In this document: in pieces, positions 19,575-45,534 of the stretch | How the letters are laid out: every line of letters starts with the position of its first letter | How positions within the stretch are numbered: position 1 is the first letter of the stretch | Assembly (NCBI RefSeq): GCF_007097395.1 | Contig: NZ_VKDC01000003.1 | Location: forward strand, 186,001-250,000 | DNA length: 64,000 bases | Source: Fulvivirga sp. M361 | Lineage (GTDB): Bacteria > Bacteroidota > Bacteroidia > Cytophagales > Cyclobacteriaceae | Direction: 5' to 3' | Translations under genes and position numbers: made by a program | The notes under the pieces: model-generated | What the model saw: only the letters and a program-made list of their open reading frames with translations | What the model was told of the DNA's origin: nothing | Databases searched by the model: none

Positions 19575-22500
19575 ATGAAAAAAACTTTACAGATTAAGAA
19601 ACTTAGGTATCTGCCAGCATTCTTATTGACGATCCTTTTTCTTGTGACTGGTATTGACAGTAATGCCCAGGGACTTGGACAAGATAATGTCACCGTGTCA
19701 GGTACTGTGGTCGATGGTGAGACAAATGAGGGATTACCAGGTGTTTCAGTGCTGGAAAAAGGCACCACAAATGGAACAGCCACTGACGTAAACGGGCAAT
19801 ATAGCGTTAATGTTTCCAGAGGAGCTGTTTTAGTGTTCAGTTCTATTGGCTATGAAAGTCAGGAGGTAACTGTCTCCAGCCAGTCAAAGATCGATATAGG
19901 ATTGAAACTGGACGTACAGTCACTTGATGAGGTGGTTGTAATTGGCTACGGTACGGTAAAAAAATCTGATCTTACCGGTTCTGTGGTCACTGTGGACCAG
20001 GAAGTGATTAAAGAAGCCAACAAAGTTAACTCTTTCCAGGCTATCCAGGGGCAGGTAGCCGGTGTGGACATCCAGGCTTCCAGTAATAAACCTGGTGGGG
20101 CCTTTAACATCCGTATACGAGGGGCCAATACGGTGAACAAAACAGAATCCGGTCAAAGCGGTGGCTTTAGTCCGGGGCAAGACCCATTATTCGTAGTGGA
20201 TGGGATATTTGTAGATGATATTTCGTGGGTAAATCCGGCTGATATTGCCCAGATGGATGTACTAAAAGACGCATCTGCCACTGCGATCTACGGAGCCAGG
20301 GGGTCTGCCGGGGTGGTGATCATTACCACCAAGAAATCGGAGTCTGGAAAGCTTAGCATTCAATACGATAACTATTTTGGAGTAAAACGTGCGTACAACC
20401 TTCCTGATATGTTCGATGGACCGCGGTTCGTACAGTTTATGCGTGATGCTGTGGTAGGGATAGACTATAGCGGAGGAAATTTTAGCACTCGTCCTGAAGA
20501 CGTGGTACTGGAAAACTTTCTACGACCTAATGAGATCTCTAATATTTCCAATGGCAGCTACACGGACTGGGTGGACCTCATGCTGGAATCAGGGTTTCAA
20601 ACCAACCATTCCGTTAACCTTACAGGCGGGCAGGGGAAAACAAGTTACGGCTTTGGCGCTGCATATACGCAGGACAAAGGTACGTTTCCGGGAGAGTCTT
20701 ATGAACGTTTTAACCTTAGGACTAATCTAAGGTCCGAGCTTTCAGATAGGTTTACATTATCTTATAACGGCTATGTAACCTATGATATATTAAACGAAGG
20801 AAGTCGTGAGGGTTTCAGAAGTGCGTATCGTCTGAGGCCTACGGGAAGTCCGTTTGACTCCAATGGTGATCCCCTGTTTTTTCCTATAGAAAGTGAGACG
20901 TTTATTACCAATCCACTTTTTGAGGAAGACAATATTACACGAGAGACCAAAACACTGAGGTATGTTGGTAATCTGAGTCTGTCTTTCCAGCCCGCCAAAG
21001 GATTTAAATTCACCACTTCTTTTTCACCTAACCTGGAATCACAGCGTTATGGAGAATATCGGGGATTATTTTCAAAGTCTGTCAGTAATCGACCTGATGT
21101 AAGAAGAGCACAGGTGAATCATGCAAATATTTTTGGATATACCTGGGACAATATCATAGACTATTCAACAAGTTTTGGTGTCGATCATGACTTCAAAGTA
21201 GGCTTGATCTCTTCTTTATGGAAGCAAGATGTAGAATCGTTTGAAACCCAGGTAAGGAGCTTTACTACAGATGAATTTCTTTTTTATAACCAGGATGCAG
21301 GGTCTGACATTAGAACATTGGGCGGTAACCTCGTCAATTCTTCCATTGCGTCTTTTAGCGCCAGAGTCAACTACACATTCAAATCAAAATATTTGTTGAC
21401 ATTGACAGGTCGTTATGATGGGGCGTCCCTATTGGCCGATGGAAATAAATGGGCATTTTTCCCATCCGCGGCTTTTGCCTGGCGTATTAAAGATGAACCG
21501 TTCTTAAGTACGGTAGATGTTGTATCTGATGCCAAGCTGCGACTGAGTTATGGTGAAGTGGGGAATACAGGCGCTTCCAACGGGCTTGTGCCTCTTCAAT
21601 CACAATCTAACATAGCACAAGATTTTACCAACCTGGGAGATCAGGCGGTACCCACTGCCTTTTTTGCTAATATTCCTAATGATGAACTGTCTTGGGAAAG
21701 GACCCGGGAGGTGAACATTGGCCTTGACTTTGGTCTGTTTTCTAACCGTATTGTCGGTACCCTGGATGTTTATAACAGAAAAACCTCTGACCTGATCCAA
21801 TTCAGAGATCTGCCTGATGTGTCCGGGTTTGGCGGGATCTGGCAGAATATCGGCGAAGTGCGTAACAGTGGGGTAGAACTCTACCTGAAGGGTGTCCCTG
21901 TTAATACAGGCGACTTTAAATGGACGGTTAGTATGAACTTCGCCAAAAACAAGAATGAACTCCTTTCCCTGAACAGCAATGCATCGGAAGAGCTTTTCAG
22001 CGTACGTGAAGCTGAAATGATCAACCGGGTCGGTGAAGAATTGGGTTCCATGTACTGGTTTGAAGCGATTGGTGTCTGGCAGATAGATGAACTCGATGAA
22101 GCGCAAAGATTTGGCCAGCAACCCGGGCAGGTGAAGGTCAGGGACCAGAATGACGATGGTGAGATCAACGACCTGGACAGGGTCGTGCTGGGTTCCCAGG
22201 CTCCGGACTGGACAGGCGGACTTACCAATACATTGAACTACAAGAATTTTGACTTTACTGTATTCGCCTATACAAGACAAGGGGTGATGAACTACAGTTG
22301 GTTCCATCGTTCCCATGGATGGGATGCAGATGACCGCCCGGCGCGTTTTAACGGGTGGGACACCAATTATTGGACGCCGGATAATCCTACCAATGACTGG
22401 CACCAACCGGGAAATTCAGGACCCCATAAAAGGGCTTTGTTTTATCAGGACGTATCATTCGTCAAAGTGGGCTACATTACCGTGGGCTATGCATTTCCCA

Positions 22501-22673
22501 GGGCTATCACCGAGTCTTTGAAGTTGGGTAGTTTAAGGATGTATGCTACGGTGCAAAACCCGTTTGTTTTTACCGATTATGAAGGTTGGGACCCTGAAAA
22601 TGCAGGAAGAAATTCCTGGGGTGCGGCTCACCTGACCCGGTCTTTCATAGCCGGAGTGAACGTAAGGTTTTAA
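19575..22673 (+). CDS. SusC/RagA-family TonB-linked outer membrane transporter
   Basis: 1032 residues, full length. A signal peptide ends near DSNAQG (about residue 32). A CarboxypepD_reg-like domain follows (about 40-118; GTVVDGETNEGLPGVSVLEK), then the TonB-box-like LDEVVVIGYGTVKKSDLTGS. The plug (about 135-245) has the IRIRGANTV and PLFVVDGIFVDD segments and DASATAIYGARGSAGVVIITT. The barrel ends with TRSFIAGVNVRF. It imports glycan fragments through the outer membrane. SusD follows after 11 bases, and five enzymes continue the operon, two GH92s, GH125, GH28 and PI-PLC. This predicts an alpha-mannose-rich, inositol-containing ligand. A GntR-type operator lies in the leader. Confidence 0.97.
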   Translation: MKKTLQIKKLRYLPAFLLTILFLVTGIDSNAQGLGQDNVTVSGTVVDGETNEGLPGVSVLEKGTTNGTATDVNGQYSVNVSRGAVLVFSSIGYESQEVTVSSQSKIDIGLKLDVQSLDEVVVIGYGTVKKSDLTGSVVTVDQEVIKEANKVNSFQAIQGQVAGVDIQASSNKPGGAFNIRIRGANTVNKTESGQSGGFSPGQDPLFVVDGIFVDDISWVNPADIAQMDVLKDASATAIYGARGSAGVVIITTKKSESGKLSIQYDNYFGVKRAYNLPDMFDGPRFVQFMRDAVVGIDYSGGNFSTRPEDVVLENFLRPNEISNISNGSYTDWVDLMLESGFQTNHSVNLTGGQGKTSYGFGAAYTQDKGTFPGESYERFNLRTNLRSELSDRFTLSYNGYVTYDILNEGSREGFRSAYRLRPTGSPFDSNGDPLFFPIESETFITNPLFEEDNITRETKTLRYVGNLSLSFQPAKGFKFTTSFSPNLESQRYGEYRGLFSKSVSNRPDVRRAQVNHANIFGYTWDNIIDYSTSFGVDHDFKVGLISSLWKQDVESFETQVRSFTTDEFLFYNQDAGSDIRTLGGNLVNSSIASFSARVNYTFKSKYLLTLTGRYDGASLLADGNKWAFFPSAAFAWRIKDEPFLSTVDVVSDAKLRLSYGEVGNTGASNGLVPLQSQSNIAQDFTNLGDQAVPTAFFANIPNDELSWERTREVNIGLDFGLFSNRIVGTLDVYNRKTSDLIQFRDLPDVSGFGGIWQNIGEVRNSGVELYLKGVPVNTGDFKWTVSMNFAKNKNELLSLNSNASEELFSVREAEMINRVGEELGSMYWFEAIGVWQIDELDEAQRFGQQPGQVKVRDQNDDGEINDLDRVVLGSQAPDWTGGLTNTLNYKNFDFTVFAYTRQGVMNYSWFHRSHGWDADDRPARFNGWDTNYWTPDNPTNDWHQPGNSGPHKRALFYQDVSFVKVGYITVGYAFPRAITESLKLGSLRMYATVQNPFVFTDYEGWDPENAGRNSWGAAHLTRSFIAGVNVRF

Positions 22674-22684
22674 AATTCAAAAAA

Positions 22685-24328: not shown

Positions 24329-24348
24329 AAAATAAGGGTTTAATAGTT

Positions 24349-24385
24349 AGGGCCGGGCTTTTCCAAAACAGAAGAGCCTGGTCTT
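24349..24385 (+). terminator. Hairpin between SusD and the enzyme genes, probable attenuator
   Basis: A 15-bp stem (24349-24363 with 24371-24385) pairs completely if four G-U pairs are counted, around a 7-base loop. It sits 20 bases behind the SusD stop and 28 before the GH92 start. There is no long T-run, so it may lower, rather than stop, expression of the enzymes relative to SusCD, or protect the SusCD mRNA end. Confidence 0.6.
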
Positions 24386-24413
24386 ATCTTTCACCTAGTG
24401 CAGCTAATAATCC

Positions 24414-26441
24414 ATGAGGAGTATCCCCTTTCTGGCTTTGATTGCCTTATTACAATGTACCCCATCGGAGACACCTTCCTTTGATCCGGTCAGTTATGTA
24501 GATGTATTCATAGGGACGGCTGGCGATAATGGTCAGCTTGACCCGGCGGCCACCGTCCCTTTCGGTATGGTAAAACTGGGACCTGACACCGACCCTCTTA
24601 ACCATAGCGGATATAACTATGAAGCGGAAAAGATCCGTGGCTTCTCGCACAACCGTATAGGAGGGGTAGGCTGTAGAGGCGCAGGAGGTAATATCCGCAT
24701 TAAACCGGGAATAGGTATTCCGAATGCCAATAGTGAATGGTATCGGAAAGCGACGGAAGAAGGTACCCCAGGTTATTATAACGTTACCTTCCAGTCAGGT
24801 ATTCAGGCCGAGATGACGGTCACTAACCAGGTGGGCTTTCACCGTTACACATTCCCTGAAACGGACAGCGCTTACTTTGTCATAGATCCGGCGGCTACCT
24901 TCGAAAAGCTGGAAGTGTTGGATCACAAGGTGATATCAATAAACGGAAACGAGCTCACCGGTTTCATCACAGCACAGAATGTATGTAACCAGGGGGCTTA
25001 TACCACTTATTTCGTGCTATATGCCAGCGAGAACTTTGGAAATACCTGGTATGAAGATGATAAGCTCTACTGGTTGCTAAACACCCAAAGAAATCAACAG
25101 GTAGAGTTTAGCGTAGTATTGTCCCCCGTTAGTATAGCGCAGGCAAAAAAGGATTTTGAGGTGAGCTACGCAGATTATGATTTTGACAAGGCCAGAGAAG
25201 AAGCCAAAGAGCGATGGAGTAGTTTACTGAGCAGGATAAAAGTAAAGGAAGAAGAAGATCAAATGACCTTATTTTATACCCACTTGTATCGTACTTTACT
25301 CACGCCGGTCAATACCACTACTACTGACAATACCTATAAAGGCACGGACGGAAAAATACATAGAGCGGATGGTTACACACATTACGATTCATGGTCCATG
25401 TGGGACACCTTCAGGACCAAATTCCCACTGATCACGCTATTGTATCCTGAGCTGGCACAGGATTTTGTAAAATCGGTCGAGGACCTTTATGTAAATGGGA
25501 AATTTGACTGGGCAGGCTTTCATGAACCGGTACCTACTGTTCGCACTGAGCATACCATACTTTTCTTGTTAGATGCATATAGAAAAGGGCTCAACATTAA
25601 TTGGGAAAGGATTTATCCTTACCTCGTCAGTGAAATGGATAGTTTGCCTTATCGTTCGCCGGACAATTGGCTGGAGTCTTCCTATGATAAGTGGGCCATG
25701 TCCCAAATTGCTGAGATAGTTGGTAACTCAAAAGATGCTGAAAAGTATCAGAATGAATCTGCTCAATACCGGCAAGTGTGGGCTAATCATTTTCAACCTA
25801 TAAATGATAGCTCTGACATTATGCACGGCTATGGCCTATATGAAGGTACGATATGGCAATACCGCTGGCATGTGCATTTTGATATCGAAGGACTGATCGA
25901 GCAGCTTGGAGGCAGGCCGCAGGCCATCGAACAGTTGTCTTACTTTTTTGACCACCACCTTTACAATCATGGGAACCAACCGGATATTCATGCACCATAC
26001 CTTTTCAATGCATTTGGAGCTCCCGGGCTTACGCAAAGATGGGTGACTAAAATACTTACCGGACCCATGGAACAGCATTATGGTACGCACCGCAAATGGG
26101 AAAGTCCGTATCAAGGAAAGATCTACAAAAACGATCCAAGGGGATACTTTCCTGAAATGGATGATGATGACGGCACGATGTCAGCATGGTACGTACTAAG
26201 CGCCATGGGGCTATATCCGTTGGAAATAGGAAAGCCTTTTTATGAACTTACAGTACCCATTTTGGATGAAATACATATAACACTTAACAATGGGAAAACA
26301 TTTGAGATAATTAGCGATAAACCAGATAGCGGGAAATATACTGTTGAATCTGTAACCCTCAACGGAACTAAAAAGACGGATTTTCGGATACATCATTCTG
26401 TCATATCAGAGGGAGGACTCCTGAAGTATAATTTGAAATGA
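24414..26441 (+). CDS. GH92 alpha-mannosidase, lipoprotein
   Basis: 675 residues with a short lipoprotein signal (ALIALLQC). The N-terminal beta-sandwich begins VSYVDVFIGTAGDNGQLDPA and includes VPFGMVKLGPDT and GFSHNRIGGVGC. The (alpha/alpha)6 domain holds WDTFRTKFPLITLLYPE, the catalytic-acid segment YEGTIWQYRWHVHFDIEGL and the calcium/base region MDDDDGTMSAWYVLSAMGLYP. GH92 enzymes are calcium-dependent inverting exo-alpha-mannosidases, most often alpha-1,2, also 1,3, 1,4 or 1,6. Linkage cannot be read from sequence. It is the first enzyme of the operon and overlaps the GH125 gene by four bases (ATGA), so the two are likely translated together. It is expected to be lipid-anchored, periplasmic or surface-exposed. 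Confidence 0.95.
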   Translation: MRSIPFLALIALLQCTPSETPSFDPVSYVDVFIGTAGDNGQLDPAATVPFGMVKLGPDTDPLNHSGYNYEAEKIRGFSHNRIGGVGCRGAGGNIRIKPGIGIPNANSEWYRKATEEGTPGYYNVTFQSGIQAEMTVTNQVGFHRYTFPETDSAYFVIDPAATFEKLEVLDHKVISINGNELTGFITAQNVCNQGAYTTYFVLYASENFGNTWYEDDKLYWLLNTQRNQQVEFSVVLSPVSIAQAKKDFEVSYADYDFDKAREEAKERWSSLLSRIKVKEEEDQMTLFYTHLYRTLLTPVNTTTTDNTYKGTDGKIHRADGYTHYDSWSMWDTFRTKFPLITLLYPELAQDFVKSVEDLYVNGKFDWAGFHEPVPTVRTEHTILFLLDAYRKGLNINWERIYPYLVSEMDSLPYRSPDNWLESSYDKWAMSQIAEIVGNSKDAEKYQNESAQYRQVWANHFQPINDSSDIMHGYGLYEGTIWQYRWHVHFDIEGLIEQLGGRPQAIEQLSYFFDHHLYNHGNQPDIHAPYLFNAFGAPGLTQRWVTKILTGPMEQHYGTHRKWESPYQGKIYKNDPRGYFPEMDDDDGTMSAWYVLSAMGLYPLEIGKPFYELTVPILDEIHITLNNGKTFEIISDKPDSGKYTVESVTLNGTKKTDFRIHHSVISEGGLLKYNLK

Positions 26442-27901
26442 TCAAGCATTCAGCAAAGGTTATGATGGAAGCACAACATTCGAACGGAGATTTTATAAAG
26501 TTGAAAGGTTTGACAGGAGTGAATGTTTTTATACATCCTAAGCCATTTTCATTTGACGATAAGTTCTTATCTCAACGTCCGGAAATGGAGGAGAGAAATT
26601 TTACCAGTCCGGCGGTCGAGCATAAAATAGAACAGGTTAAAAAACGCATTAAAAACGAAGAGCTGGCCTGGATGTTTGAAAACTGCTATCCAAACACCCT
26701 GGATACGACAGTAGATTTTGAATACATTGACGGAAAACCCGATACCTTCATTATAACAGGTGATATTGATGTCATGTGGCTAAGGGATTCTACCGCGCAG
26801 GTATGGCCATATTTTGAACTGATTGACCGGGACGAAAGGTTGAAAGAGTTGTTCAGAGGGCTGATCAATCGTCAGGCTAAGTGCGTTTTACTGGATTTTT
26901 GTGCTAACACTTCTTATAAAGGTAAGCATAAGGTATCTGAACGGAAGGGTGACAAGCTAAAGATTGCCACGGGAGTCAGTGAAAGCAAATGGGAGATTGA
27001 TTCCCTTTGTTATTTTATCCGGCTTTCTTATCGTTATTATGAACTTACCGGAGATAGATCTGCGTTTGATGAAAGTTGGGACCAGGCCATGCGCCTGGTG
27101 CTACGAACTTTTCAAAAGAAGCAGAGGAAAGGCGATACCACTTCCTCTTTTTTTGAAAGGAGCCAGGGTAAACGAACCTTATCACTAAGATATAGAGGTA
27201 AAGGAAGTCCCTCCAATCCCATTGGATTGATCGCCTCAGCCTTCAGGCCTTCCGGTGATGGGTGTATGTATCCTTTTTGCATACCTTCTAACTTATTTGC
27301 AGTGGAGGCATTGGGCCAGTTAAGTGAGATGTACATTGAGGTTATGGGCAACCGAAAATTTGCTGATGAGTGTATGTGTATGGGGAAGGAGGTAAGAGAA
27401 GCTTTAGATCACCATGCTGTTGCCGAGCATTTAAACTATGGAAAAATATATGCCTATAAAGTGGATAGTTACGGGAATAAGTTGTTTCCGGATGACCCTA
27501 ATGTACTATCGTTGATCTCCCTGAAATATTTATTGTCCAAAGAAAACTATGACAGCAACGTCTACTTCAACACCCGACGCTATTTGCTAAGTAATGATCA
27601 CCGTTATAGTTTTAAAGGGAAGGTGGCCGAAGGATGGGGAGGCCCTCATACCGGTCTCTATACTATACGGCCTATGGGGATTATCCTCAGGGCAATGACC
27701 AGTGAAGACGATGAGGAGATAATGATCTGTCTCAAGACATTGATAAAAATGCATGATGGGTCTGGTTTTATGCATGAAACCTTTCACAAAGACGATGCCT
27801 CCGGGTTTCCCCGAAGTTGGTTCGCCCGGACAAATACATTATTTGGTGAGATGATTCTTAGGCTGTCGACACAAAAACCAAAACTGCTGAAATCCATTTA
27901 A
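26438..27901 (+). CDS. GH125 exo-alpha-1,6-mannosidase
   Basis: 487 residues. Family hallmarks are FENCYPNTLDTTVDFEYIDG, then DVMWLRDSTAQVWPYFEL around residue 115, MYPFCIPSNLFAVEALGQ, and FPRSWFARTNTLFGEMILRL at the end. GH125 enzymes are inverting, metal-free exo-mannosidases specific for alpha-1,6-linked mannose, for example in N-glycan and GPI-type cores. Unusually there is no signal peptide: the frame is closed by a stop just before the start codon, and the first 45 residues are polar. It may therefore act in the cytosol after import, or the N-terminus may have been lost. It overlaps the GH92 gene by four bases and is followed after three bases by a second GH92. Confidence 0.95.
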   Translation: MIKHSAKVMMEAQHSNGDFIKLKGLTGVNVFIHPKPFSFDDKFLSQRPEMEERNFTSPAVEHKIEQVKKRIKNEELAWMFENCYPNTLDTTVDFEYIDGKPDTFIITGDIDVMWLRDSTAQVWPYFELIDRDERLKELFRGLINRQAKCVLLDFCANTSYKGKHKVSERKGDKLKIATGVSESKWEIDSLCYFIRLSYRYYELTGDRSAFDESWDQAMRLVLRTFQKKQRKGDTTSSFFERSQGKRTLSLRYRGKGSPSNPIGLIASAFRPSGDGCMYPFCIPSNLFAVEALGQLSEMYIEVMGNRKFADECMCMGKEVREALDHHAVAEHLNYGKIYAYKVDSYGNKLFPDDPNVLSLISLKYLLSKENYDSNVYFNTRRYLLSNDHRYSFKGKVAEGWGGPHTGLYTIRPMGIILRAMTSEDDEEIMICLKTLIKMHDGSGFMHETFHKDDASGFPRSWFARTNTLFGEMILRLSTQKPKLLKSI

Positions 27902-27904
27902 AAC

Positions 27905-30187: not shown

Positions 30188-31743
30188 GATCATTACACAC
30201 TATGAAGTACACCCTGGTCCTTTGTTACCTGTTGGTTAGCGTTAACCTGCTGTCAAAAGACATTAATATTCTTACGTTTGGAGCTAAACCCGATGGCGAA
30301 ACCCTCAACACTTCGTTCATTCAAAAGGCAATAGATAAGGTGAGTAACGCCGGGGGTGGGAAGGTGATTATACCGGCAGGTACTTTCCTTTCGGGAAGTA
30401 TTATCCTGAAATCAGGTGTGCACCTTTACCTGGAAGAAAACGCAATTTTGCTGGGTACTACAGACATTTATCAGTACACAAAACTTAATTCGTGGAAGGC
30501 GTTGGTGCTGGCAGACCAGGTCAATAACATCAAAATTACCGGTAAAGGTATCATAGACGGTCAGGGTCGAAAACTGGCTTTAAATGTGGATAGCCTGTTC
30601 CATATCGGGGAAATTAATATTGGTTATAACTTCAGAAGGATGCGCCCTAATGAAGATGGCAGACCTCAGTTGATCAATTTTAAGAACTGCAAAAACATAG
30701 AGGTCAGCGGGATTGAATTAAGGAATGCTTCCAATTGGGTACAGACTTATGATCAGTGCCATAACCTGGAAATTGATAACATTAGTGTAAATAGTACGGT
30801 GTATTGGAATAATGATGGGATCGATATCAGCGATTGTAAGAATGTGCGGATAACCAATTCTTTTATTAACTCGGCCGATGACGGGATATGCCTCAAGTCA
30901 CATAGCGCTGAGCATTCCAATGATAGTATTTACATTGCCAATTGTACGGTACGGTCCAGCGCCAGCGCCATTAAATTCGGAACAGCTTCAGACGGAGGTT
31001 TTAAAAATGTGAAGATCCATGACATTACTGTATATGACACGTTCAGGTCCGCCATAGCATTGGAATCCGTGGACGGCGGTGTTTTAGAGAACATAGATAT
31101 TAGTGACATTGTCGCCACCAACACCGGCAATGGTATTTTCATCCGCCTGGGTCATCGCAACACACAAGGGCAGGTGGGAGTATTAAAGAACATTAGTATT
31201 CGAAATGTGCGGGTTGAGATCCCTTTTGAGCAACCTGACCTGTATTATGATTGTCGGGGTCCCCGATTACCTTTTTTCCATAATCCCTTTCCTAACTCTA
31301 TCACCGGTATTGAAGGGCACTATGTGGAAAATGTACATTTGGAAAACATAACGATCACCCATCCGGGAAGGGCTTCGAGTGGCTATGCCCAGGTACCACT
31401 TTATCGTCTGGCCGGTGTGCCGGAAAATGCATCAGACTATCCCGAGTTTCACATGTTTGGGGAGTTGCCTGCCTGGGGGTTTTATGTCAGGCATGTAAAA
31501 GGGCTTACCTTTAAGAATGTACAACTCAAATTGAAGGAAGATGACTTCAGGCCGGCACTTGTGTTTGACGATGTGCATGATCTGGAACTCGATGGGTTAA
31601 AAGTATATCCACGGACAACGCATGATCAATTGATATTTTGGAACGTTGAAGATTATAACATAGCACACAGCACGGTAGATGATAAGAAACTTGACAGCCC
31701 TGTGATTTTAGAGAATGTTATCACCGGTAAAAATAAAGAGTGA
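30184..31743 (+). CDS. GH28-family polygalacturonase-like enzyme, secreted
   Basis: 519 residues. A start at Met 1 overlaps the GH92 stop by four bases; Met 7 (MKYTLVLCYLLVSVNLLS) gives a cleaner signal peptide. The rest is a right-handed parallel beta-helix opening with NILTFGAKPDGETLNT and AIDKVSNAGGGKVIIPAGTF. The GH28 catalytic residues are visible as NNDGIDISDCKNVRI (around residue 215) and SADDGICLKS, with the second Asp pair as DD. The usual GHG motif is not obvious. GH28 enzymes hydrolyse galacturonosyl and related alpha-uronosyl linkages. In a mannosidase/PI-PLC operon this one may cut a uronic acid in the same glycan; that is inference. The 3' end overlaps the PI-PLC gene by four bases. 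Confidence 0.9.
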   Translation: MRSLHTMKYTLVLCYLLVSVNLLSKDINILTFGAKPDGETLNTSFIQKAIDKVSNAGGGKVIIPAGTFLSGSIILKSGVHLYLEENAILLGTTDIYQYTKLNSWKALVLADQVNNIKITGKGIIDGQGRKLALNVDSLFHIGEINIGYNFRRMRPNEDGRPQLINFKNCKNIEVSGIELRNASNWVQTYDQCHNLEIDNISVNSTVYWNNDGIDISDCKNVRITNSFINSADDGICLKSHSAEHSNDSIYIANCTVRSSASAIKFGTASDGGFKNVKIHDITVYDTFRSAIALESVDGGVLENIDISDIVATNTGNGIFIRLGHRNTQGQVGVLKNISIRNVRVEIPFEQPDLYYDCRGPRLPFFHNPFPNSITGIEGHYVENVHLENITITHPGRASSGYAQVPLYRLAGVPENASDYPEFHMFGELPAWGFYVRHVKGLTFKNVQLKLKEDDFRPALVFDDVHDLELDGLKVYPRTTHDQLIFWNVEDYNIAHSTVDDKKLDSPVILENVITGKNKE

Positions 31744-33215: not shown

Positions 33216-33917
33216 TCAAAGCCTGGCATAATGCGGAGTAAGATGCGCCCTCATGTTTCTGCGTAACTCTGCCGCCGTACCTTTTTCCAGGGTTGTTACC
33301 AGGTCCATATGTGAGATATCCCCTCTTGGGGGTTCGGATTTCAGGTGCGATTCCACTTCCATCATATAGTTGAAAATCGGAAGCAACATTTGCTGGAAAC
33401 GGGTCAGTGTGGAATTGCCCGTCATAGCGTAGAGCTTACCGTGAAATGCAATTTCATACCCTAACCGTACTTCGAGGGAATGCTTACACTCGGGATCCTC
33501 TGCCTCTTTCCGGGCAATATCTTTTAACTCTACAATATCTTCATCCGTTTTTCGCACCACAAGCAGGTCGGACATCCCCACTTCAAGTACCAACCTGAGC
33601 TCAAAAATATCTTTCATGGTTTTATCACTGAGAAGGCTGGGGTCCATGAGCCGGGTCACACTGCTTAGCAGGTCCGGTTCAGTAATGACCATTCCCTTAC
33701 GTTTCTTAGACTCTACTATGCCCAGCATTCTTAACCTGCTGAGCGCTTCCCGCACCACATTTCTGCTTACACCGAGCTCTTCAGCCAGCTCGATCTCTTT
33801 GGGCATGGCATCACCTACCTTGAAGTTGTTCTTTTTCAGGTACTCCATCAGGTTTTGCTCTACCTGATCTGCCAGTGAGGTTTTTACAACTGGGGATAAC
33901 TTTAACGATTTAGTCAC
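33216..33917 (-). CDS. GntR-family transcriptional regulator, FadR/FCD subgroup
   Basis: About 233 residues from the GTG at 33917; a longer frame exists to 34130, but its first 71 residues are hydrophobic nonsense and run into the divergent GH28 gene, so the GTG is preferred. The winged HTH is at about residues 8-75 (LADQVEQNLMEYL, ELAEELGVSRNVVREALSRL, GIVESKKRKGMVITEPD). The FCD effector domain follows (about 95-225) with FELRLVLEVGMSDLL and the helix with YEIAFHGKLYAMTGN, whose His is a likely metal ligand. FCD regulators often bind organic acids such as uronates. It sits between two operons that share a palindrome and probably represses both until an inducer, perhaps a uronate or inositol catabolite, is present. 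Confidence 0.9.
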   Translation of the reverse strand: MTKSLKLSPVVKTSLADQVEQNLMEYLKKNNFKVGDAMPKEIELAEELGVSRNVVREALSRLRMLGIVESKKRKGMVITEPDLLSSVTRLMDPSLLSDKTMKDIFELRLVLEVGMSDLLVVRKTDEDIVELKDIARKEAEDPECKHSLEVRLGYEIAFHGKLYAMTGNSTLTRFQQMLLPIFNYMMEVESHLKSEPPRGDISHMDLVTTLEKGTAAELRRNMRAHLTPHYARL

Positions 33918-34008
33918 TGATTGTCCGATTTTATAAAGTTGTCGAAATATATGGAGCCATAATTGATTTGTGGTCAAAAATTGTTCCTTAAAGTCATACT
34001 TTTTTGAT

Positions 34009-34039
34009 ATATTGCAATATGTAATTATGTAGTACATAA
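34009..34039. promoter_or_regulatory. Double palindrome in the GntR/GH28 divergent promoter
   Basis: ATATTGCAATAT (34009-34020) is a 12-base palindrome. TTATGTA-G-TACATAA (34025-34039) is a perfect 7+1+7 palindrome ending six bases before the GH28 start codon. The second shares its core with the palindrome at 19509-19523 before SusC. The spacing from the GntR GTG is about 110 bases. A likely operator of the GntR/FCD protein; the first palindrome could bind it too or another factor. Confidence 0.65.
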
Positions 34040-34045
34040 ATAGCA

Positions 34046-35431
34046 ATGGAATACAATATAACGGAATTTGGGGCAAAAGGCAATGGTGTAGCAGATGATT
34101 CTTTTGCAATACAGCAGGCGATTGATACATGTAGTGGCCAGGGAGGAGGGCGTATAGTAGTGCCTTCCGGGCGTACGTTCTTAAGTGGTCCTTTTAAGCT
34201 TAAGTCAAACATCGAATTTCACGTAGGGATTGGGGCAAAGCTGCTGGCCAACCCGGACGAAAGTGTTTACACAGAAAGTGCTTTTCGTGAAAACAGGGGG
34301 GAAGGCTCCATATGGATAGGTGGCGAGAATATTGAAAATGTTATTATTACAGGGGGTGGAACCATTGACGGGAACGGGATTTCTTTCATGGGACAAGAAA
34401 AAAATGATGCCTACGATTTGAAACCATTTGATGAAGTAGATCCCAGGCCGCATGTTATCACCATTATAGGAGGTAAAAGCATTAAGATCATGAATATAAC
34501 CATGAAGGATGCGGCTTACTGGGGCATTCATCTTGTAGGCTGCCACGACGTGAGCATGGAGGGTCTTTTTATTTATAATTGTTTGAAAATCAGGAATAGC
34601 GATGGGATAGACCTGGACCATTGCCAGAATGTGAATATTTCCAACTGCCATATCGAATCAGGAGATGATTGCATATGCTTCAAAAACAGGCGTGAGTATG
34701 CAGAGTTCGGACCTTGCAAGGACATTACGATAACCGGGTGTACGATGGTGTCTACTTCATGTGCAGTAAAATTTGGGTCCGAGAATGTTGACCAGATCAG
34801 AAATGTAACCATCACTAATTGTATTATTAAAGACAGTAACCGTGGCATTGGGATCCAAAATCGTGATGAAGGTACCATTTCAAATATTATTGTATCCAAT
34901 GTGATCATGGAGTGCAGGTTGTTTTCCGATGTCTGGTGGGGTAAATCAGAGCCGATATATATCACTGCTTTTCCCAGGTCGACTGAAAACCATAAAGACG
35001 CGGGGATCAGGTTGCCAAAAGGTGCTACAAGCGGTGAGGTAGGACAGGTATCGAATATTACTTTCGCTAACATTCGTTGTAAAAGTGAGAACGGTGTGTT
35101 TGTAGGTAGTTATGCCACGGATAAGGTACGTGACGTACGCTTTGAAGGAGTGGATATAGCCATTGATAAGACTACCGATTATCCTGGTGGGATCTATGAT
35201 TGCAGGCCATGTGCCGGCCCGGATACGCTTGAAGGCCGTACAGCTGGCTTTTTCTTATACAATGTTTCTGATGTAAATATCGTGGACTGTAGTCTCATTT
35301 GGGGGCCGCATCGCGCTGACTATTTTGAAACTTCGATCATCGACGAAGGGTCGGTCAATGTGAAGGTCAAAAATTTTGATTTTGCGGAAGAAAGCAGGAC
35401 AGGCCATACTAATTTAAAGATGATAAAGTGA
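34046..35431 (+). CDS. GH28/pectate-lyase-fold enzyme without signal peptide
   Basis: 461 residues. The ATG is preceded in frame by a stop at 34037-34039, so no longer form exists and the protein starts directly with MEYNITEFGAKGNGVADDS, the mature N-terminus of the beta-helix family. GH28 residues are present as NSDGIDLDHCQNVNI (around residue 192) and ESGDDCICFKN, then NCIIKDSNRGIGIQNRDEG. It should therefore be cytosolic, acting on a short imported uronosyl fragment, an unusual place for GH28. It opens an operon with a symporter (four-base overlap), MIOX and a phosphatase, so an inositol- or uronate-linked disaccharide is a sensible guess. The exact linkage is unknown. Confidence 0.88.
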   Translation: MEYNITEFGAKGNGVADDSFAIQQAIDTCSGQGGGRIVVPSGRTFLSGPFKLKSNIEFHVGIGAKLLANPDESVYTESAFRENRGEGSIWIGGENIENVIITGGGTIDGNGISFMGQEKNDAYDLKPFDEVDPRPHVITIIGGKSIKIMNITMKDAAYWGIHLVGCHDVSMEGLFIYNCLKIRNSDGIDLDHCQNVNISNCHIESGDDCICFKNRREYAEFGPCKDITITGCTMVSTSCAVKFGSENVDQIRNVTITNCIIKDSNRGIGIQNRDEGTISNIIVSNVIMECRLFSDVWWGKSEPIYITAFPRSTENHKDAGIRLPKGATSGEVGQVSNITFANIRCKSENGVFVGSYATDKVRDVRFEGVDIAIDKTTDYPGGIYDCRPCAGPDTLEGRTAGFFLYNVSDVNIVDCSLIWGPHRADYFETSIIDEGSVNVKVKNFDFAEESRTGHTNLKMIK

Positions 35432-37593
35432 TTTTCGGACTGACGGTTTTGGACATTATTGTATTGGTGGTCTACTTTGGGGTCATCATATACATTGGTG
35501 TTCGGGCGAGTTTCAGGATCAATAATACAGAAGACTATTTCCTGGGGGGTAGAAAGTTTGGTAAGCTCACCAGTACCTTCGCCAGTTTTGGCCAGGCCAC
35601 TTCCGCTGATGGGCCGGCAGGAGTAGCTACCACCACGTTCAATAACGGGGCTGCAGGCATATGGAGTTCTTTGCTCATGCTTTTTGTTACTCCCTTGTTT
35701 TGGATCACCGCGCCGTGGCTCAGAAGGCTGCATATCCTTACCATGGGGGATTTCTACCTTGAAAGATATGGCTCAGGGAAGATGGCAGCCACCTATGCGC
35801 TGATCGGTTCTATTGGAATGATGGGATTATTGTCCGTAGGGTATATGGCGGTAACAAAAACGACTATGGCCATGATGGCTAAGCCTGCCACAGAACTCAC
35901 TATACAGGAACAGCAGGAGCTGCAAGATGCCAATGAGCTGGTACACCTGGAATCGTCCTCTATTGATCAGCTTTCCGGTGCTGAGATAGAAAGACTTGAA
36001 TTATTACGTAAAGAAAAACCGAGAGGGATCTTCTCCTATGCCAATGAAAACGTGCTCATCTGGTCGATCTGTCTGCTGGTAATGTCTTATACAGCATTAG
36101 GAGGTTTGGAGGCAGCGGTTTATACAGACATGTTGCAGGGCATATTTATTATTCTGCTATCTATTGTTTTGATACCGTTTGCCATGGAGGCTATTAACCT
36201 GCGATATGGCGGTTCAGGCGGTATGGGCGCACTTAAAAACTTACATGAAAACTTACCTGAAAGTATGTTTGAGGTGTTTGGATCACCCCAAACCATTGAT
36301 TTTACCTGGTATTTCATTTTAACAGTAGCCCTGGTATCAGGAATGACAGTGGTCACCCAGCCTAACCAATTGGTGACAGCCGGTGCTGCTAAAGATGAGT
36401 TTTCCGCCCGGGTCGGATTTGTTACCGGCACTTTTATGAAACGTATTGTTACCATTATGTGGGGGTTGCTGGGCCTGTGCGCTGTTCTTCTATATACCGG
36501 CAAGATCACCAACTCTGACCTGGTATGGGGTTATGCTACACGTGAATTACTTGGACCGCTTAATTTAGGGCTCATAGGCCTGATGCTGGCAAGCTTGATG
36601 GCTGCCCTTATGTCTACCGCCGATTGTCTGATGATCACGGTATCCGGGTTGATCGTTAAAAATTTGTATAAACCTTTTTTCAAGGTCGATTCTCACAGGC
36701 ATCTCGTGTGGGCCGGAAGGGTAGCGGGAGCATTGTTCCTGGTGGGTGGTGCTGTGATCACTACACAATTTGACAATATTTTGCAGGTCTTGAAGTTTAT
36801 CTGGGAGTTTTTCGTAGTATTTGCTGCCGCTTTTTGGCTTGGCCTGAAATGGAGGAAAGCCAACGTACATGGTGCCTGGTGGTCTATTTTGGGAGCGTTT
36901 TCATTGTTTTACCTGGTCCCGGTCATTACTGCATTAGTATTTCCAGGTATAAAAACCTCGGAACAGCTCCTTAAACTGACACAGCCCGAGCCTATCGTCA
37001 GGACCTATATCGCCAAACAAGTAGATGTAGATGTCCGTAACGAATTGATCGCCAAATCTTCTGCCAACCAAAATGGCGAGAGTGAAATACCACCATTGAT
37101 CCGGGTAGGGGAGAAATTCTCAAAAACATACACACTTCCGAAGAAATCTATTTTCTGGTCCAAAGGTATTACCCAGGATGCAGACGGATCATTTTATGGC
37201 CAGGGGTATCCTTACTTTGAATTGATATTTCTGGATGCGATCGGATTTGACCTGTCAAAGAACCCGTATGCACTTAACGAAACCATCCGAATGCTCATCA
37301 GGCTTGTTTTCCCATTTATACTTTTGATCATTGGGTCGCTGCTGTTAAAGGCCGACCAGGAAGAGCAGATAGGCCGATTTTATCATAAAATGAGGATTCG
37401 TGTAGCATCTGGGGAAACGCTTAAAATTGATCATGAAAAAGAAATGGAGGAAAATAATGTATTGTTGTTTCCCGGGTCAGATTGGGAATTTTATCGCTGG
37501 AACAGGCAAGACCTTATAGGTTTCGTGCTCGCCTGCGGTATGGTGGTAGCTATCATTGGCCTGTTGTATTTAGTGGTCACTATCGGAAGCTGA
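35428..37593 (+). CDS. Sodium/solute symporter, SSS family
   Basis: 721 residues, GTG start in a GTGA overlap with the GH28 stop. The N-terminus has LTVLDIIVLVVYFGVIIYIG and then the family signature DYFLGGRKFGKLTSTFASFG. About 13 membrane helices are seen. A middle loop (about 150-200) is charged, and a long periplasmic or cytosolic insert lies at about 510-600 with RTYIAKQVDVDVRNEL. The protein is longer than typical SSS proteins because of this insert and the C-terminal extension. Family members import myo-inositol, sugars, proline or sialic acid with sodium. With MIOX as the next gene, inositol or a glycosyl-inositol is the likely substrate; this rests on context only. Confidence 0.92.
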   Translation: MIFGLTVLDIIVLVVYFGVIIYIGVRASFRINNTEDYFLGGRKFGKLTSTFASFGQATSADGPAGVATTTFNNGAAGIWSSLLMLFVTPLFWITAPWLRRLHILTMGDFYLERYGSGKMAATYALIGSIGMMGLLSVGYMAVTKTTMAMMAKPATELTIQEQQELQDANELVHLESSSIDQLSGAEIERLELLRKEKPRGIFSYANENVLIWSICLLVMSYTALGGLEAAVYTDMLQGIFIILLSIVLIPFAMEAINLRYGGSGGMGALKNLHENLPESMFEVFGSPQTIDFTWYFILTVALVSGMTVVTQPNQLVTAGAAKDEFSARVGFVTGTFMKRIVTIMWGLLGLCAVLLYTGKITNSDLVWGYATRELLGPLNLGLIGLMLASLMAALMSTADCLMITVSGLIVKNLYKPFFKVDSHRHLVWAGRVAGALFLVGGAVITTQFDNILQVLKFIWEFFVVFAAAFWLGLKWRKANVHGAWWSILGAFSLFYLVPVITALVFPGIKTSEQLLKLTQPEPIVRTYIAKQVDVDVRNELIAKSSANQNGESEIPPLIRVGEKFSKTYTLPKKSIFWSKGITQDADGSFYGQGYPYFELIFLDAIGFDLSKNPYALNETIRMLIRLVFPFILLIIGSLLLKADQEEQIGRFYHKMRIRVASGETLKIDHEKEMEENNVLLFPGSDWEFYRWNRQDLIGFVLACGMVVAIIGLLYLVVTIGS

Positions 37594-37614
37594 ATATCTT
37601 AATGTAAACTAATT

Positions 37615-38481
37615 ATGGAGTTATCAAAGCAAGAGAAAAAGAAAGCCCATGATCTTATCGAGGAGTGGGAAGACGATGTCCTGAGAAGATACCCTGAGGA
37701 GCCCGTCAAGGAAAAAAGTGAATTCAGAAACTACGATGATCCTGCCCGCGATACGGTGAAGGAGTTTTATCGTACGAATCACCAGTATCAAACGTACGAT
37801 TTTGTATTACAGAAGGAAAAGGAGTTTTTGTCACTGGATAGAAAGCAAATGACATTATGGGAAGCGGTGGAGTACCTCAACACCATGGTAGATGATTCAG
37901 ACCCTGACATTGACCTGGACCAGACCCAGCACCTGCTACAAACCTCCGAAGCCATTCGTGCTGATGGCCACCCTGATTGGTTTATTCTCACAGGGTTCCT
38001 TCATGACCTGGGGAAAGTACTTTGTTTGTTTGGAGAACCCCAATGGGCGGTGGTTGGAGATACGTTCCCCGTAGGCTGCGCTTTTTCTGATAAGATCGTT
38101 TATCCCGGGTTTTTCAATGACAACCCGGACACTAAAAACGCACGTTTTAATACCAGGCTTGGGGTTTATAAAGAGCATTGCGGGCTGGATAATGTACATA
38201 TGTCCTGGGGGCATGATGAATACATCTATCATATCATGAAAGATCATCTGCCGGAAGAAGGGTTGTATATGTTACGTTATCATAGCTTTTATGCTCAACA
38301 TAGGGAAAGGGCCTATGACCACCTCATGAGCAGGCATGATCATGAAATGTTCAGGTGGGTAGATAAATTCAACCCATACGATCTATATACCAAAGCACCG
38401 GTAAAACCGGATGTGCAGGCATTAAGGCCCTATTACGAGGACCTGGCTGCGAAATTTTTACCGGATACACTCACATTTTAA
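37615..38481 (+). CDS. myo-Inositol oxygenase (MIOX)
   Basis: 288 residues, close to the 285 of the mammalian enzyme. MIOX uses a mixed-valent di-iron centre to cleave myo-inositol with O2, giving D-glucuronate in one step. The six iron ligands of the mouse enzyme map to His106, His130, Asp131 (GFLHDLGK), His200 (SWGHDEY), His223 (RYHSFY) and Asp256 (NPYDLY). The substrate-lid motif GDTFPVGCAFSDKIVYPG is intact. No signal peptide: cytosolic. It follows the symporter by 21 bases and precedes a phosphatase by one. The usual bacterial inositol route (IolG dehydrogenase and others) is not in the window, so this operon uses the oxygen-dependent route into uronate catabolism. Confidence 0.96.
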   Translation: MELSKQEKKKAHDLIEEWEDDVLRRYPEEPVKEKSEFRNYDDPARDTVKEFYRTNHQYQTYDFVLQKEKEFLSLDRKQMTLWEAVEYLNTMVDDSDPDIDLDQTQHLLQTSEAIRADGHPDWFILTGFLHDLGKVLCLFGEPQWAVVGDTFPVGCAFSDKIVYPGFFNDNPDTKNARFNTRLGVYKEHCGLDNVHMSWGHDEYIYHIMKDHLPEEGLYMLRYHSFYAQHRERAYDHLMSRHDHEMFRWVDKFNPYDLYTKAPVKPDVQALRPYYEDLAAKFLPDTLTF

Positions 38482-38482
38482 A

Positions 38483-39862
38483 GTGAAAAATACGGCTGCA
38501 TTCTTGTTGATAATGTTGTCTGTTGTGCTGGAAGTACAGGCCCAAACTCATGAAGACCGCTATCGGCCTACGGACTGGCCGGACCATGTCATTCTAAATT
38601 TGACAGAGGAGGGAAATGAAAGAACGATCACCTGGAGAACAGATACTTCAGCCGGACCACAGTCAGTACAGTGGCTGGTGGCGGATGCCTCTTCTAATCT
38701 GGAAGAAAAAGCAAAAACAGCCGCTGCTCATTCGGAAATGATACAGACGGAGGAGGTACTGGCGCAATACAGTACATATCACTTTAAAGGTCTGACGGCC
38801 GGAATAACTTATGCCTATCGTGTGGGAGCGAAAGAGCACTGGAGTGAGTGGTATCAGTTTAATATTCCCCACGAGGACCAGGCTTTCACCTTTCTTTATT
38901 TCGGTGATGCACAGAATGACATGCGTGACCTGTGGTCGCGTTGTATCCGAAAGGCCACTGACCTTTCAGAAGAAGTCGATTTCATGCTCCACGCCGGTGA
39001 TATGGTAGATTTTGCCAGTGCCAACCGGGAGTGGGGAGAGTGGTTCTTTGGGGGTGGATGGATGTTCGCCTCTACACCACAAGTGCCTGTGGCAGGTAAT
39101 CATGAGTATGTCAGGAAAAACGGGCAACCGGCTTTGAATCATTATTGGAGAGCTTCATTTACTGTTCCGTTAAATGGTCCGGCCGGGCTGGAGGAAACGG
39201 TTTATTACTTTGACTATGAAAATGTACGGTTTATTGTTCTTGACAGTCGCGATATGCTCATTGATGATGAGCATGCAAAGAGGCAGGCCCACTGGTTGGA
39301 AACATTATTGAAAAATAATGATCAAAAATGGACCATTATAAGTCACCATCACCCCATTTACTCTGCCCGGGCCAATCGAGGGGATTACAAAGTACGAGCC
39401 TGGCTGGAACCTCTATACGATAAATACGGTGTAGACTTGGTGCTACAGGGGCATCATCATTCTTTCGCCAGGGGGCGTGGCGAAAAGGAAGTAGGAAAAG
39501 AAATGTTTTCCGGTCCGGTCTATTACGTTTCTAACAGTGGCCCAAAAATGTATGACACCAATTTTGCCCCCTGGATGGAACGTGTAGGTACTGATGTGCA
39601 GCTATTTCACCAGGTCAAAGTGGTGGACAATACCATTGAAGTATTGACGTATCTGGTCAACGGGGAGCTTTACGATCATATCAAACTAACGAAACGAGCT
39701 AACGGGGATAAAGAATTTCATGAGATTGCCATAGAGGGTATAAAAGAACGGCTTGATTTTTCACATGCCAGTTATGGAGCGGACATTGACCTGGGAGAGG
39801 AAAATAGAAAGCGTTTCAAAAAAATGGCGGAGGAGTATCTGAGGAAAAGACAGAAGCGATAG
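38483..39862 (+). CDS. Purple-acid-phosphatase-like metallophosphoesterase, secreted
   Basis: 459 residues; GTG start one base after the MIOX stop. Signal peptide MKNTAAFLLIMLSVVLEVQAQ. A fibronectin-III-like N-domain (about 30-130; VILNLTEEGNERTITWRTDT) precedes the calcineurin-like domain with all metal motifs: FGDAQND, HAGDMVDF, VAGNHEY, ISHHHPIYS and QGHHHSFARG. The family hydrolyses phosphomonoesters, often inositol phosphates. It lies behind MIOX, with a PI-PLC in the neighbouring operon. Release of myo-inositol from inositol phosphate in the periplasm is therefore the likely job. The C-terminal 35 residues are charged and probably helical. Confidence 0.92.
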   Translation: MKNTAAFLLIMLSVVLEVQAQTHEDRYRPTDWPDHVILNLTEEGNERTITWRTDTSAGPQSVQWLVADASSNLEEKAKTAAAHSEMIQTEEVLAQYSTYHFKGLTAGITYAYRVGAKEHWSEWYQFNIPHEDQAFTFLYFGDAQNDMRDLWSRCIRKATDLSEEVDFMLHAGDMVDFASANREWGEWFFGGGWMFASTPQVPVAGNHEYVRKNGQPALNHYWRASFTVPLNGPAGLEETVYYFDYENVRFIVLDSRDMLIDDEHAKRQAHWLETLLKNNDQKWTIISHHHPIYSARANRGDYKVRAWLEPLYDKYGVDLVLQGHHHSFARGRGEKEVGKEMFSGPVYYVSNSGPKMYDTNFAPWMERVGTDVQLFHQVKVVDNTIEVLTYLVNGELYDHIKLTKRANGDKEFHEIAIEGIKERLDFSHASYGADIDLGEENRKRFKKMAEEYLRKRQKR

Positions 39863-45531: not shown

Positions 45532-45534
45532 AAT

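What the first reader, a model, noticed from the sequence alone, without database searches (positions are those of the whole stretch)
19575..39862. Possible polysaccharide-utilisation-like system for mannosylated inositol phospholipids (GPI anchors, PI-mannosides or GIPCs)
Two GH92 mannosidases, an exo-alpha-1,6-mannosidase (GH125), a PI-PLC, a phosphatase and a myo-inositol oxygenase are encoded with SusC/SusD and two GH28 enzymes in two operons linked by a common palindrome. Each step maps on a glycosylated inositol phospholipid: mannose trimming, phosphodiester cleavage, dephosphorylation, import and oxidation of inositol to D-glucuronate. GH28 could cut a uronic acid bound to inositol, as in plant and algal glycosyl-inositol-phosphoceramides. 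I know of no described Sus-type locus combining these enzymes. No sulfatase or lipase is present, so the lipid part would be left behind.
Basis: partly seen in the sequence, partly recalled or inferred. Interest (0 to 1): 0.9.

Follow-up and report, generated by a model that had tools for sequence, protein, structure and literature searches.

The report
Bacterial locus for eating glyco-inositol lipids
This Bacteroidota genome carries a gene set that looks built to strip and eat the sugar-inositol head of plant-type membrane sphingolipids, a food source for which our searches found no described bacterial gene cluster; the function is predicted from sequence, not measured.

Summary
Two operons (SusC-SusD-GH92-GH125-GH92-GH28-PI-PLC; GH28-SSF-MIOX-phosphatase) flank a GntR/FCD gene and share a 13-bp palindrome found exactly twice in the 8.13-Mb genome, both times here; it is kept at both promoters in two related genomes, once with one mismatch.

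The set is conserved. A same-genus contig has the whole layout with a GH115-like gene and GH29 instead of GH92a, GH125 and GH28a. Of 41 named PI-PLC loci, 12 have GH92; MIOX is in 9 of 12 versus 1 of 29 others. The second GH28 (GH28b) lies within 9 kb of MIOX in 14 of 17 sampled genomes that carry it; MIOX occurs in only 29 of 395. Partner families elsewhere (GH115, GH89, GH92, GH29, GH27) cover most published sugars of plant glycosyl-inositol-phosphoceramides (GIPCs).

Best reading: a Sus-type locus for GIPC-like lipids, in which GH28b splits a uronosyl-inositol and MIOX opens the inositol. GPI anchors and PI-mannosides fit less well. Against it: PI-PLC is often not linked to MIOX, and nothing was assayed.

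The parts
19510..19522 (.). palindrome TATGTAGTACATA upstream of susC, candidate GntR operator
   Evidence: conserved upstream of susC in L079 (exact) and L055 (1 mismatch)
19575..22673 (+). SusC-type TonB-dependent transporter
   Evidence: TIGR04056 823 bits; 53-57% identical partners in L055, L079, L153
22685..24328 (+). SusD-type surface lipoprotein
   Evidence: PF14322, PF07980
24414..26441 (+). GH92a alpha-mannosidase, lipoprotein-like signal
   Evidence: PF07971 319 bits; nearest solved CcMan5 4aq0, but keeps Glu where CcMan5 has Gln
26438..27901 (+). GH125 exo-alpha-1,6-mannosidase family; no signal peptide seen
   Evidence: PF06824 437 bits; nearest solved BT3781 2p0v; frames checked
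27905..30187 (+). GH92b alpha-mannosidase of a locus-specific type (motif ESNGAQSTWFVP)
   Evidence: PF07971 447 bits; 57-61% identical orthologues in 12 other PI-PLC loci
30184..31743 (+). GH28a, secreted, uronidase-like
   Evidence: PF00295; 53-54% relatives near PI-PLC in L073, L078
31740..32792 (+). PI-PLC-C1, lipoprotein-like; predicted cutting of the inositol-phosphate-lipid bond
   Evidence: PF16670 390 bits; AlphaFold model pLDDT 92 matches 5fyr, 3h4w and PLC-delta 1qat; H33 N34 E78 D80 H124 invariant in an alignment of 25
33216..33917 (-). GntR/FCD regulator (probable GTG start 33917; the ORF runs on to 34130)
   Evidence: PF00392, PF07729; start and length of relatives
34026..34038 (.). 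palindrome TATGTAGTACATA between GntR and GH28b, candidate operator
   Evidence: conserved in L055/L165 and L079
34046..35431 (+). GH28b without signal peptide; predicted uronosyl-inositol hydrolase
   Evidence: PF00295 107 bits; linked to MIOX in 14 of 17 genomes; signal peptide/SSF covariation
35428..37593 (+). SSF sodium:solute symporter, predicted importer of uronosyl-inositol
   Evidence: PF00474; 54-66% relatives only beside signal-less GH28b in the loci examined
37615..38481 (+). MIOX, myo-inositol oxygenase
   Evidence: PF05153 360 bits; residues 29-287 of 288 aligned with inositol oxygenase 2huo
38483..39862 (+). purple-acid-type phosphatase, signal peptide
   Evidence: PF00149, PF16656; 58% relative after MIOX in G404

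Best explanation
The two operons form one Sus-type system for eating the head group of glycosylated, uronic-acid-bearing inositol phospholipids, most likely GIPC-like sphingolipids of plants or algae. Shown: gene content, two-operon layout, shared operator-like palindrome, conservation of the set and of its physical linkages. Inferred: PI-PLC, an exported lipoprotein, frees the glycosyl-inositol-phosphate from the lipid; SusC/D carries it into the periplasm; GH92a, GH92b and GH28a (with GH125, whose location is unclear) take off the outer sugars; the purple acid phosphatase removes the phosphate; the 721-aa SSF symporter imports the remaining uronosyl-inositol; GH28b, which has no signal peptide, splits it in the cytoplasm; MIOX turns the inositol into D-glucuronate; both uronates enter the UxaC pathway, of which the genome encodes UxaC. 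The GntR/FCD protein probably represses both operons through the palindrome until a uronate-type product accumulates.
For: Same-genus contig G404:C133 has PAP-MIOX-SSF-GH28b / GntR / GH2-GH29-PI-PLC-GH92b-GH115-like-SusD-SusC. One search gave 41 named PI-PLC loci: 12 of 41 have GH92 in the held flank; MIOX in 9 of these 12 and 1 of the other 29 (Fisher 5.7e-6). The 12 are named as Flavobacteriaceae genera such as Maribacter, Cellulophaga, Algibacter and Polaribacter. GH115 or GH115-like is in 11 of the 12. L078 has GH89, GH27, GH115, GH92, GH28 and a GH29 relative around PI-PLC. Published plant GIPC heads: GlcA on inositol, then Man, Glc, GlcNAc or GlcN, further Ara, Gal, Man, Fuc (passages of PMC12201980 and PMC9113257). 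Genome level: PI-PLC 27, MIOX 29, both 11 of 395 (Fisher 2.8e-7). GH28b (>=54%) in 17 of 395 genomes; 14 also have MIOX and in 14 of 14 it lies within 9 kb (genome-level Fisher 2.3e-15). The 3 without MIOX have GH92 and/or GH89 near GH28b. GH28b without signal peptide goes with the window-type SSF in 7 of 7 loci including the window; GH28b with signal peptide goes with another SSF type in 11 of 11 loci where one was found. UxaC present.
Against: PI-PLC and MIOX are both present in 11 of 395 genomes, but PI-PLC lies in the fetched MIOX neighbourhood (about 10 kb each side) in only 2 of these (G000, G202). Of the 6 other PI-PLC-bearing relatives, only 3 have MIOX (G404, G423, G443), in G423 about 23 kb away. 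12 of 27 other MIOX neighbourhoods show none of GH28a, GH28b, GH92, GH89 or PI-PLC (recounted). L153 has SusC/D-GntR-GH28b-SSF but no MIOX in a 77% complete genome, its PI-PLC being elsewhere. 29 of 41 named PI-PLC loci show no GH92. GH125 was found in no other locus (0 of 41 and 0 of 33). The window has no GH115, GH89 or GH29 in the locus, so its own uronosidase would have to be GH28, a family whose NCBIfam models are polygalacturonases and rhamnogalacturonidases. Some partner families elsewhere (GH2, GH3, GH39, GH97 and the alpha-rhamnosidase GH106) are not explained by the published GIPC sugars. Many genomes are related, so p-values are too optimistic. No activity was measured; lipids of the habitat are unknown.
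Confidence: 0.6

Rival explanations
1. The locus feeds on GPI anchors of eukaryotic surface proteins: GH92, GH125 and GH92 take off the alpha-1,2, alpha-1,6 and alpha-1,4 mannoses and PI-PLC cuts the anchor.
For: Three mannosidases of suitable families in the window (linkages of the GPI glycan recalled); PI-PLC is the classic GPI-cutting activity (recalled).
Against: No glucosaminidase and no peptidase family among the locus proteins. GH28, GH115 and fucosidases in the homologous loci are unexplained. GH125 is not conserved (0 of 41).
Confidence: 0.1
2. The substrate is a soluble or polymeric inositol-bearing glycan (for example a uronosyl-inositol phosphoglycan), not a lipid, and PI-PLC is a side activity.
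For: MIOX-GH28b loci without PI-PLC in the fetched flank are common (12 of the 13 GH28b-bearing among 27 other MIOX neighbourhoods); L192 carries GH39, GH97 and GH106, more than GIPC needs.
Against: PI-PLC lies in or beside the set in the window, G404, G202 and L079 and in 12 GH92 loci; genomes with MIOX have PI-PLC more often than expected (11 of 395 have both).
Confidence: 0.14
3. Mannosyl-inositol lipids without uronic acid: bacterial PI-mannosides or fungal mannosyl-inositol-phosphoceramides.
For: Two GH92, GH125 and PI-PLC fit mannosyl-inositol-phosphate; the locus has no GH115.
Against: GH28a and GH28b would have no role; homologous loci carry an alpha-glucuronidase family.
Confidence: 0.08
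4. An ordinary alpha-mannan or pectin locus next to an unrelated inositol operon.
For: GH92/GH125 occur in yeast-mannan loci and GH28 in pectin loci (recalled); PI-PLC loci without GH92 are the majority (29 of 41).
Against: Shared palindrome at both promoters in three genomes; conserved two-operon synteny; GH92b orthologues share an unusual motif, exact in 11 of 13 and with one change in 2; no endo-mannanase or pectin lyase family among the locus proteins.
Confidence: 0.08

Closest known systems
Sus-type polysaccharide utilization loci of Bacteroidota
   Same: SusC/SusD pair, lipoprotein glycosidases, dedicated regulator, symporter
   Different: encodes PI-PLC, phosphatase and MIOX; the target appears to be a glycolipid head group; GntR/FCD regulator with a two-site palindrome
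Yeast alpha-mannan loci of Bacteroides thetaiotaomicron (recalled; GH125 BT3781 seen)
   Same: GH92 and GH125 families
   Different: no GH76 or GH99 (recalled as their endo-enzymes) among the locus proteins; PI-PLC, MIOX and GH28 added
Rhamnogalacturonan and polygalacturonan GH28 enzymes (NCBIfam BT4146, BT4153, BT4155, PglB models)
   Same: GH28a and GH28b belong to GH28 and hit these models
   Different: scores far below the cut-offs (best GH28a 260 of 500 bits, best GH28b 229 of 600); GHG and RIK motifs (recalled as GH28 hallmarks) replaced
Animal-type myo-inositol oxygenase (2huo)
   Same: nearly full-length MIOX match
   Different: placed after a glycosidase and a symporter and before a phosphatase, in a Sus-type system
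Bacteroides inositol-lipid synthesis (PMC9246714, abstract start and passages seen)
   Same: concerns inositol lipids in Bacteroidota
   Different: that work is on making inositol lipids; this locus is predicted to degrade glycosylated ones

Membership tests
Sus-type PUL | adjacent SusC and SusD genes | tested here: met
Sus-type PUL | linked carbohydrate-active enzymes, exported | tested here: met
   GH92a, GH92b, GH28a with signal-like N-termini, by eye; GH125 and GH28b without
Sus-type PUL | substrate-specific co-regulation of the genes | tested here: inconclusive
   shared palindrome at both promoters, conserved in two relatives; no expression data
GIPC-degrading system | enzyme for the inositol-phosphate-lipid bond | tested here: met
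   PI-PLC-C1 family, active-site residues invariant, fold match; activity not measured
GIPC-degrading system | enzyme for the uronic acid on inositol | tested here: inconclusive
   GH28b linked to MIOX; GH115 or GH115-like in 11 of 12 GH92 loci; activity unknown
GIPC-degrading system | growth on or cutting of GIPC | not testable with these tools
   needs bench work
Yeast alpha-mannan PUL | GH76 or GH99 endo-acting enzyme | tested here: not met
   no such family among the locus proteins
Pectin/rhamnogalacturonan locus | polysaccharide lyases, GH78, GH105 with GH28 | tested here: not met
   none among the proteins of 19575-39862; a GH88-type protein lies at 9311-11776
PF16670 PI-PLC-C1 | family match with conserved catalytic residues | tested here: met
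   390 bits against cut-off 29.9; H33 N34 E78 D80 H124 invariant in 25 sequences; catalytic roles recalled
MIOX | family match with conserved metal ligands | tested here: met
   360 bits; alignment to 2huo keeps the His/Asp positions (ligand identities recalled)
Bacterial iol inositol dehydrogenase pathway | IolG and further Iol enzymes | not tested
   none among the locus proteins; rest of the genome not searched for them

The most novel reading that the evidence does not exclude
A widespread, undescribed Bacteroidota pathway turns the head groups of plant and algal GIPCs into food, and its core is a new glycosidase activity: the GH28b type hydrolyses uronosyl-inositol, either in the cytoplasm after import by one SSF type, or in the periplasm with another SSF type importing free inositol, in most cases feeding MIOX. 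GH115-type alpha-glucuronidases take its place in Flavobacteriaceae such as Maribacter.
Probability: 0.5. Interest if true: 0.87.

Novelty: new variant of a known kind. Interest (0 to 1): 0.8.

Why it matters
GIPCs are described as the predominant glycosphingolipids of plant membranes (PMC12201980, abstract start in the listing), yet none of the papers listed by ten full-text searches describes, in its title or abstract start, a bacterial locus for using them. If the prediction holds, it extends Sus-type systems from polysaccharides to glycolipid head groups, gives GH28 a new activity, offers a reason why MIOX is kept in these Bacteroidota, and yields enzymes for dissecting GIPC structure, whose sugar stereochemistry standard LC-MS/MS does not resolve (PMC12201980 passage).

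Tried and rejected
GH92b specificity from the His-Glu pair (recalled as the alpha-1,2 signature of BT3990): present in the window, but the Glu is absent in all 12 other sequences, so not used.

GH92a as a mannosyl-phosphate-uncapping enzyme: its nearest solved relative is CcMan5, recalled as such, but the window keeps the Glu that CcMan5 has as Gln; not favoured.

GPI-anchored arabinogalactan proteins as target, because the full-length GH115 of L081 is nearest to BtGH115A, which I recall as the GH115 that a cited title calls specific for decorated arabinogalactans (title in the reference list seen): set aside, since no arabinogalactan set appeared among the locus proteins scanned. Not every ORF of every locus was scanned.

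AlphaFold model of the GH115-like protein: pLDDT 63; Foldseek hits GH138, GH115 and GH67 with low TM-scores; only the sequence profile match to GH115 structures (best E 9.7e-20) is relied on.

A first PI-PLC tree used wrongly oriented loci and was discarded; one search replaced it. 34 genomes with MIOX matches below the curated cut-off were dropped from counts. G162, one of the 28 other MIOX genomes, was not examined for its neighbourhood. Two GH28b matches at 34-36% (G143, G188) were left out.

Neighbourhood tallies come from tblastn with locus proteins within the DNA held; families not in the query set are missed, and contig ends cut some flanks (some loci are only 3-6 kb). Absence of GH28b from the GH115-bearing named loci holds for the held flank of at most 10 kb only. 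L055 and L165 are one contig and were counted once in the signal-peptide/SSF count. Signal peptides were judged from the first ATG and hydropathy, not with a dedicated program; GH28b of L153 could start further upstream at a TTG.

Full report
OBSERVATION. Pfam and NCBIfam scans confirm each gene. Operon 1 is SusC, SusD, GH92a, GH125, GH92b, GH28a, PI-PLC-C1 (19575-32792); operon 2 is GH28b, SSF, MIOX, purple-acid-type phosphatase (34046-39862); a GntR/FCD gene lies between them on the other strand. Genes within operons overlap by 4 bp or lie 1-85 bp apart. N-termini look like lipoprotein or secreted signals for SusD, GH92a, GH92b, GH28a, PI-PLC and the phosphatase, and not for MIOX, GH28b or GH125 (judged by eye).

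REGULATION. TATGTANTACATA occurs twice in the window with 0.00 expected, before susC and between GntR and GH28b. In the 8.13-Mb genome there are no further copies; the reversed control pattern also occurs twice, so the count is about what chance gives and the signal lies in the positions. Of 141 loci then held, four had exact matches: two copies of the window's own stretch (L001, L002), L055 and L079. L079 (Agaribacillus aureus) has it before both susC and GH28b; L055 (same genus as the window) has it between GntR and GH28b, and a one-mismatch copy 78 bp before susC. L153, which has the same GntR/GH28b pair, has only imperfect copies, with 1 and 2 mismatches. This fits one regulator on two promoters, but binding is not shown.

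CONSERVED SYSTEM. A PI-PLC search found 27 of 395 sampled phylum genomes and 7 of 58 relatives, the window's genome counted in both. Of 33 regions fetched around these PI-PLC genes, two carry GH92. One is G404, same genus. Its contig reads PAP-MIOX-SSF-GH28b / GntR / GH2-GH29-PI-PLC-GH92b-GH115-like-SusD-SusC, with identities of 55-77% to the window for the shared genes. The backbone is thus the same and the trimming enzymes differ. The other is G202, of another family: GH89-SusC, then SusD-GH92b-GH92-unknown-DUF4861-PI-PLC-metallophosphatase-HTCS-MIOX-GH2, then SSF-GH28a-GH28b. Of the six other PI-PLC-bearing relatives, three have MIOX (G404, G423, G443) and three do not (G398, G401, G412).

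NAMED RELATIVES. The genome-contig scan with the PI-PLC gave 41 loci. Twelve have GH92 within the held flank: Allomuricauda, two Algibacter, Gramella, Cellulophaga baltica, Flavobacterium undicola, four Maribacter, Polaribacter, Flavicella. MIOX is in 9 of the 12 and in 1 of the other 29 (L079). A GH115 or GH115-like gene is in 11 of 12, GH29 in 9, a metallophosphatase in 11, an HTCS-like regulator in 12. Full-length GH115 was confirmed by Pfam in L081 and L078 (440 and 453 bits); that of L081 is nearest to BtGH115A. The shorter GH115-like type matches GH115 structures by profile. L078 adds GH89 and GH27. The window's family is probably Cyclobacteriaceae, inferred from a same-family contig of 53253 bases (G412:C181) equal in length to the contig of L100, 'Cyclobacteriaceae bacterium Ww429'.

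MIOX AND GH28b. MIOX passes the cut-off in 29 of 395 genomes, 11 of which also have PI-PLC (Fisher 2.8e-7). I fetched 27 of the other 28 MIOX neighbourhoods (L038). GH28b relatives of at least 54% are in 17 of 395 genomes (two further matches at 34-36% left out), and 14 of these have MIOX, in all 14 on the same contig and 2.3-8.7 kb away (coordinates, distances; genome-level Fisher 2.3e-15). These 14 fall in five families (f1, f4, f5, f7, f8). The three exceptions (G238, G014, G120) have GH92 and/or GH89 near GH28b. Relatedness among genomes makes the p-values too optimistic. Against this: near MIOX, PI-PLC appears only in G000 and G202 of the 11 genomes with both; and 12 of the 27 neighbourhoods show none of GH28a, GH28b, GH92, GH89 or PI-PLC.

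TRANSPORT LOGIC. Where GH28b has no signal peptide (window, L079, L153, L165, L171, L198, L199) the neighbouring SSF is of the window type (54-66% identity in the six others), 7 of 7. Where it has one, the SSF is closer to another type (L071's) in 11 of 11 loci with an SSF found; five further loci (L154, L155, L156, L192, L197) showed none. The simplest reading is that the window-type SSF imports the uronosyl-inositol for cytoplasmic cutting, while the other type imports free inositol after periplasmic cutting. This is inference, and shared ancestry of the neighbouring genes is an alternative cause of the pattern.

ENZYMES. The PI-PLC model has pLDDT 92, and its best Foldseek hits are the Ca-dependent PI-PLCs 5fyp/5fyr/5fyo and 3h4w, then mammalian PLC-delta; H33, N34, E78, D80 and H124 are invariant in 25 sequences. 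That 3h4w-type enzymes can use a hydroxyl other than O-2 of inositol is recalled and would matter if O-2 is glycosylated. GH28b keeps the three Asp positions (NSD, GDD) but lacks the His and Lys of the GHG and RIK motifs (motif roles recalled), so a changed specificity is plausible. GH92b shares ESNGAQSTWFVP exactly with 10 of its 12 orthologues, two differing by one residue, where the solved GH92s shown have EGN followed by an aromatic motif.

SUBSTRATE. Plant GIPC heads carry GlcA on inositol, then Man, Glc, GlcNAc or GlcN, and Ara, Gal, Man and Fuc further out (PMC12201980 and PMC9113257, passages). The families seen across the loci (GH92/GH125, GH89, GH27, GH29, GH115, PI-PLC, phosphatase, MIOX) cover most of this list. 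Not explained by it: GH106 and GH39 in L192, and the roles of GH2, GH3 and GH97. GPI anchors or PI-mannosides leave the uronidases and fucosidases unexplained. The window's locus itself has no GH115, GH89 or GH29, so its own lipid may be richer in mannose, with GH28a/GH28b as the uronosidases.

LITERATURE. Ten searches were made. Searches found no paper; the others, in that order, listed 15 of 1368, 12 of 55, 15 of 33, 15 of 30, 15 of 12029, 5 of 5, 2 of 2 and 10 of 97 papers. None of the listed titles and abstract starts describes a bacterial GIPC locus; unlisted papers were not seen. Passages only were read in PMC12201980, PMC9113257, PMC11036162, PMC9522356 and PMC9246714. Most subscription papers and all bioRxiv preprints are missing from that library.

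VERDICT. Biochemical proof is missing.

Noticed in passing
window 12334-14253 (+): One protein joins a glucosamine-6-phosphate isomerase domain and a PIG-L de-N-acetylase domain.
   Followed up: no
window 9311-11776 (+): One protein joins a BNR_4 domain and a GH88-type domain; a SusD lies at 825-2186, which may mean another uronate-glycan locus.
   Followed up: no
window 14952-16334 (+): 15399-16334 matches only the C-terminal part of an SSF transporter; with the unscanned ORF before it this may be a split or decayed gene.
   Followed up: no
window 43201-51269 (-): A penicillin-binding transglycosylase/transpeptidase lies next to a bacterial alpha-2-macroglobulin, recalled as a usual pair.
   Followed up: no
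window 26438-27901 (+): GH125 has no signal peptide in any nearby frame although neighbouring glycosidases do.
   Followed up: partly
L038 6639-8435; relatives in L067, L069, L176, L179: A 598-aa protein without any Pfam match recurs in PI-PLC or MIOX loci; possibly an undescribed enzyme family.
   Followed up: partly
L074 9137-10990: A BD-FAE-type esterase domain is fused in frame to the PI-PLC; L085 and L086 have open frames of like length with the same esterase match.
   Followed up: partly
L083, L088, L090, L091, L096: PI-PLC is followed by a 42-44% relative of the locus metallophosphatase in loci without GH92 or MIOX in the held flank, perhaps a simpler inositol-phospholipid module.
   Followed up: no
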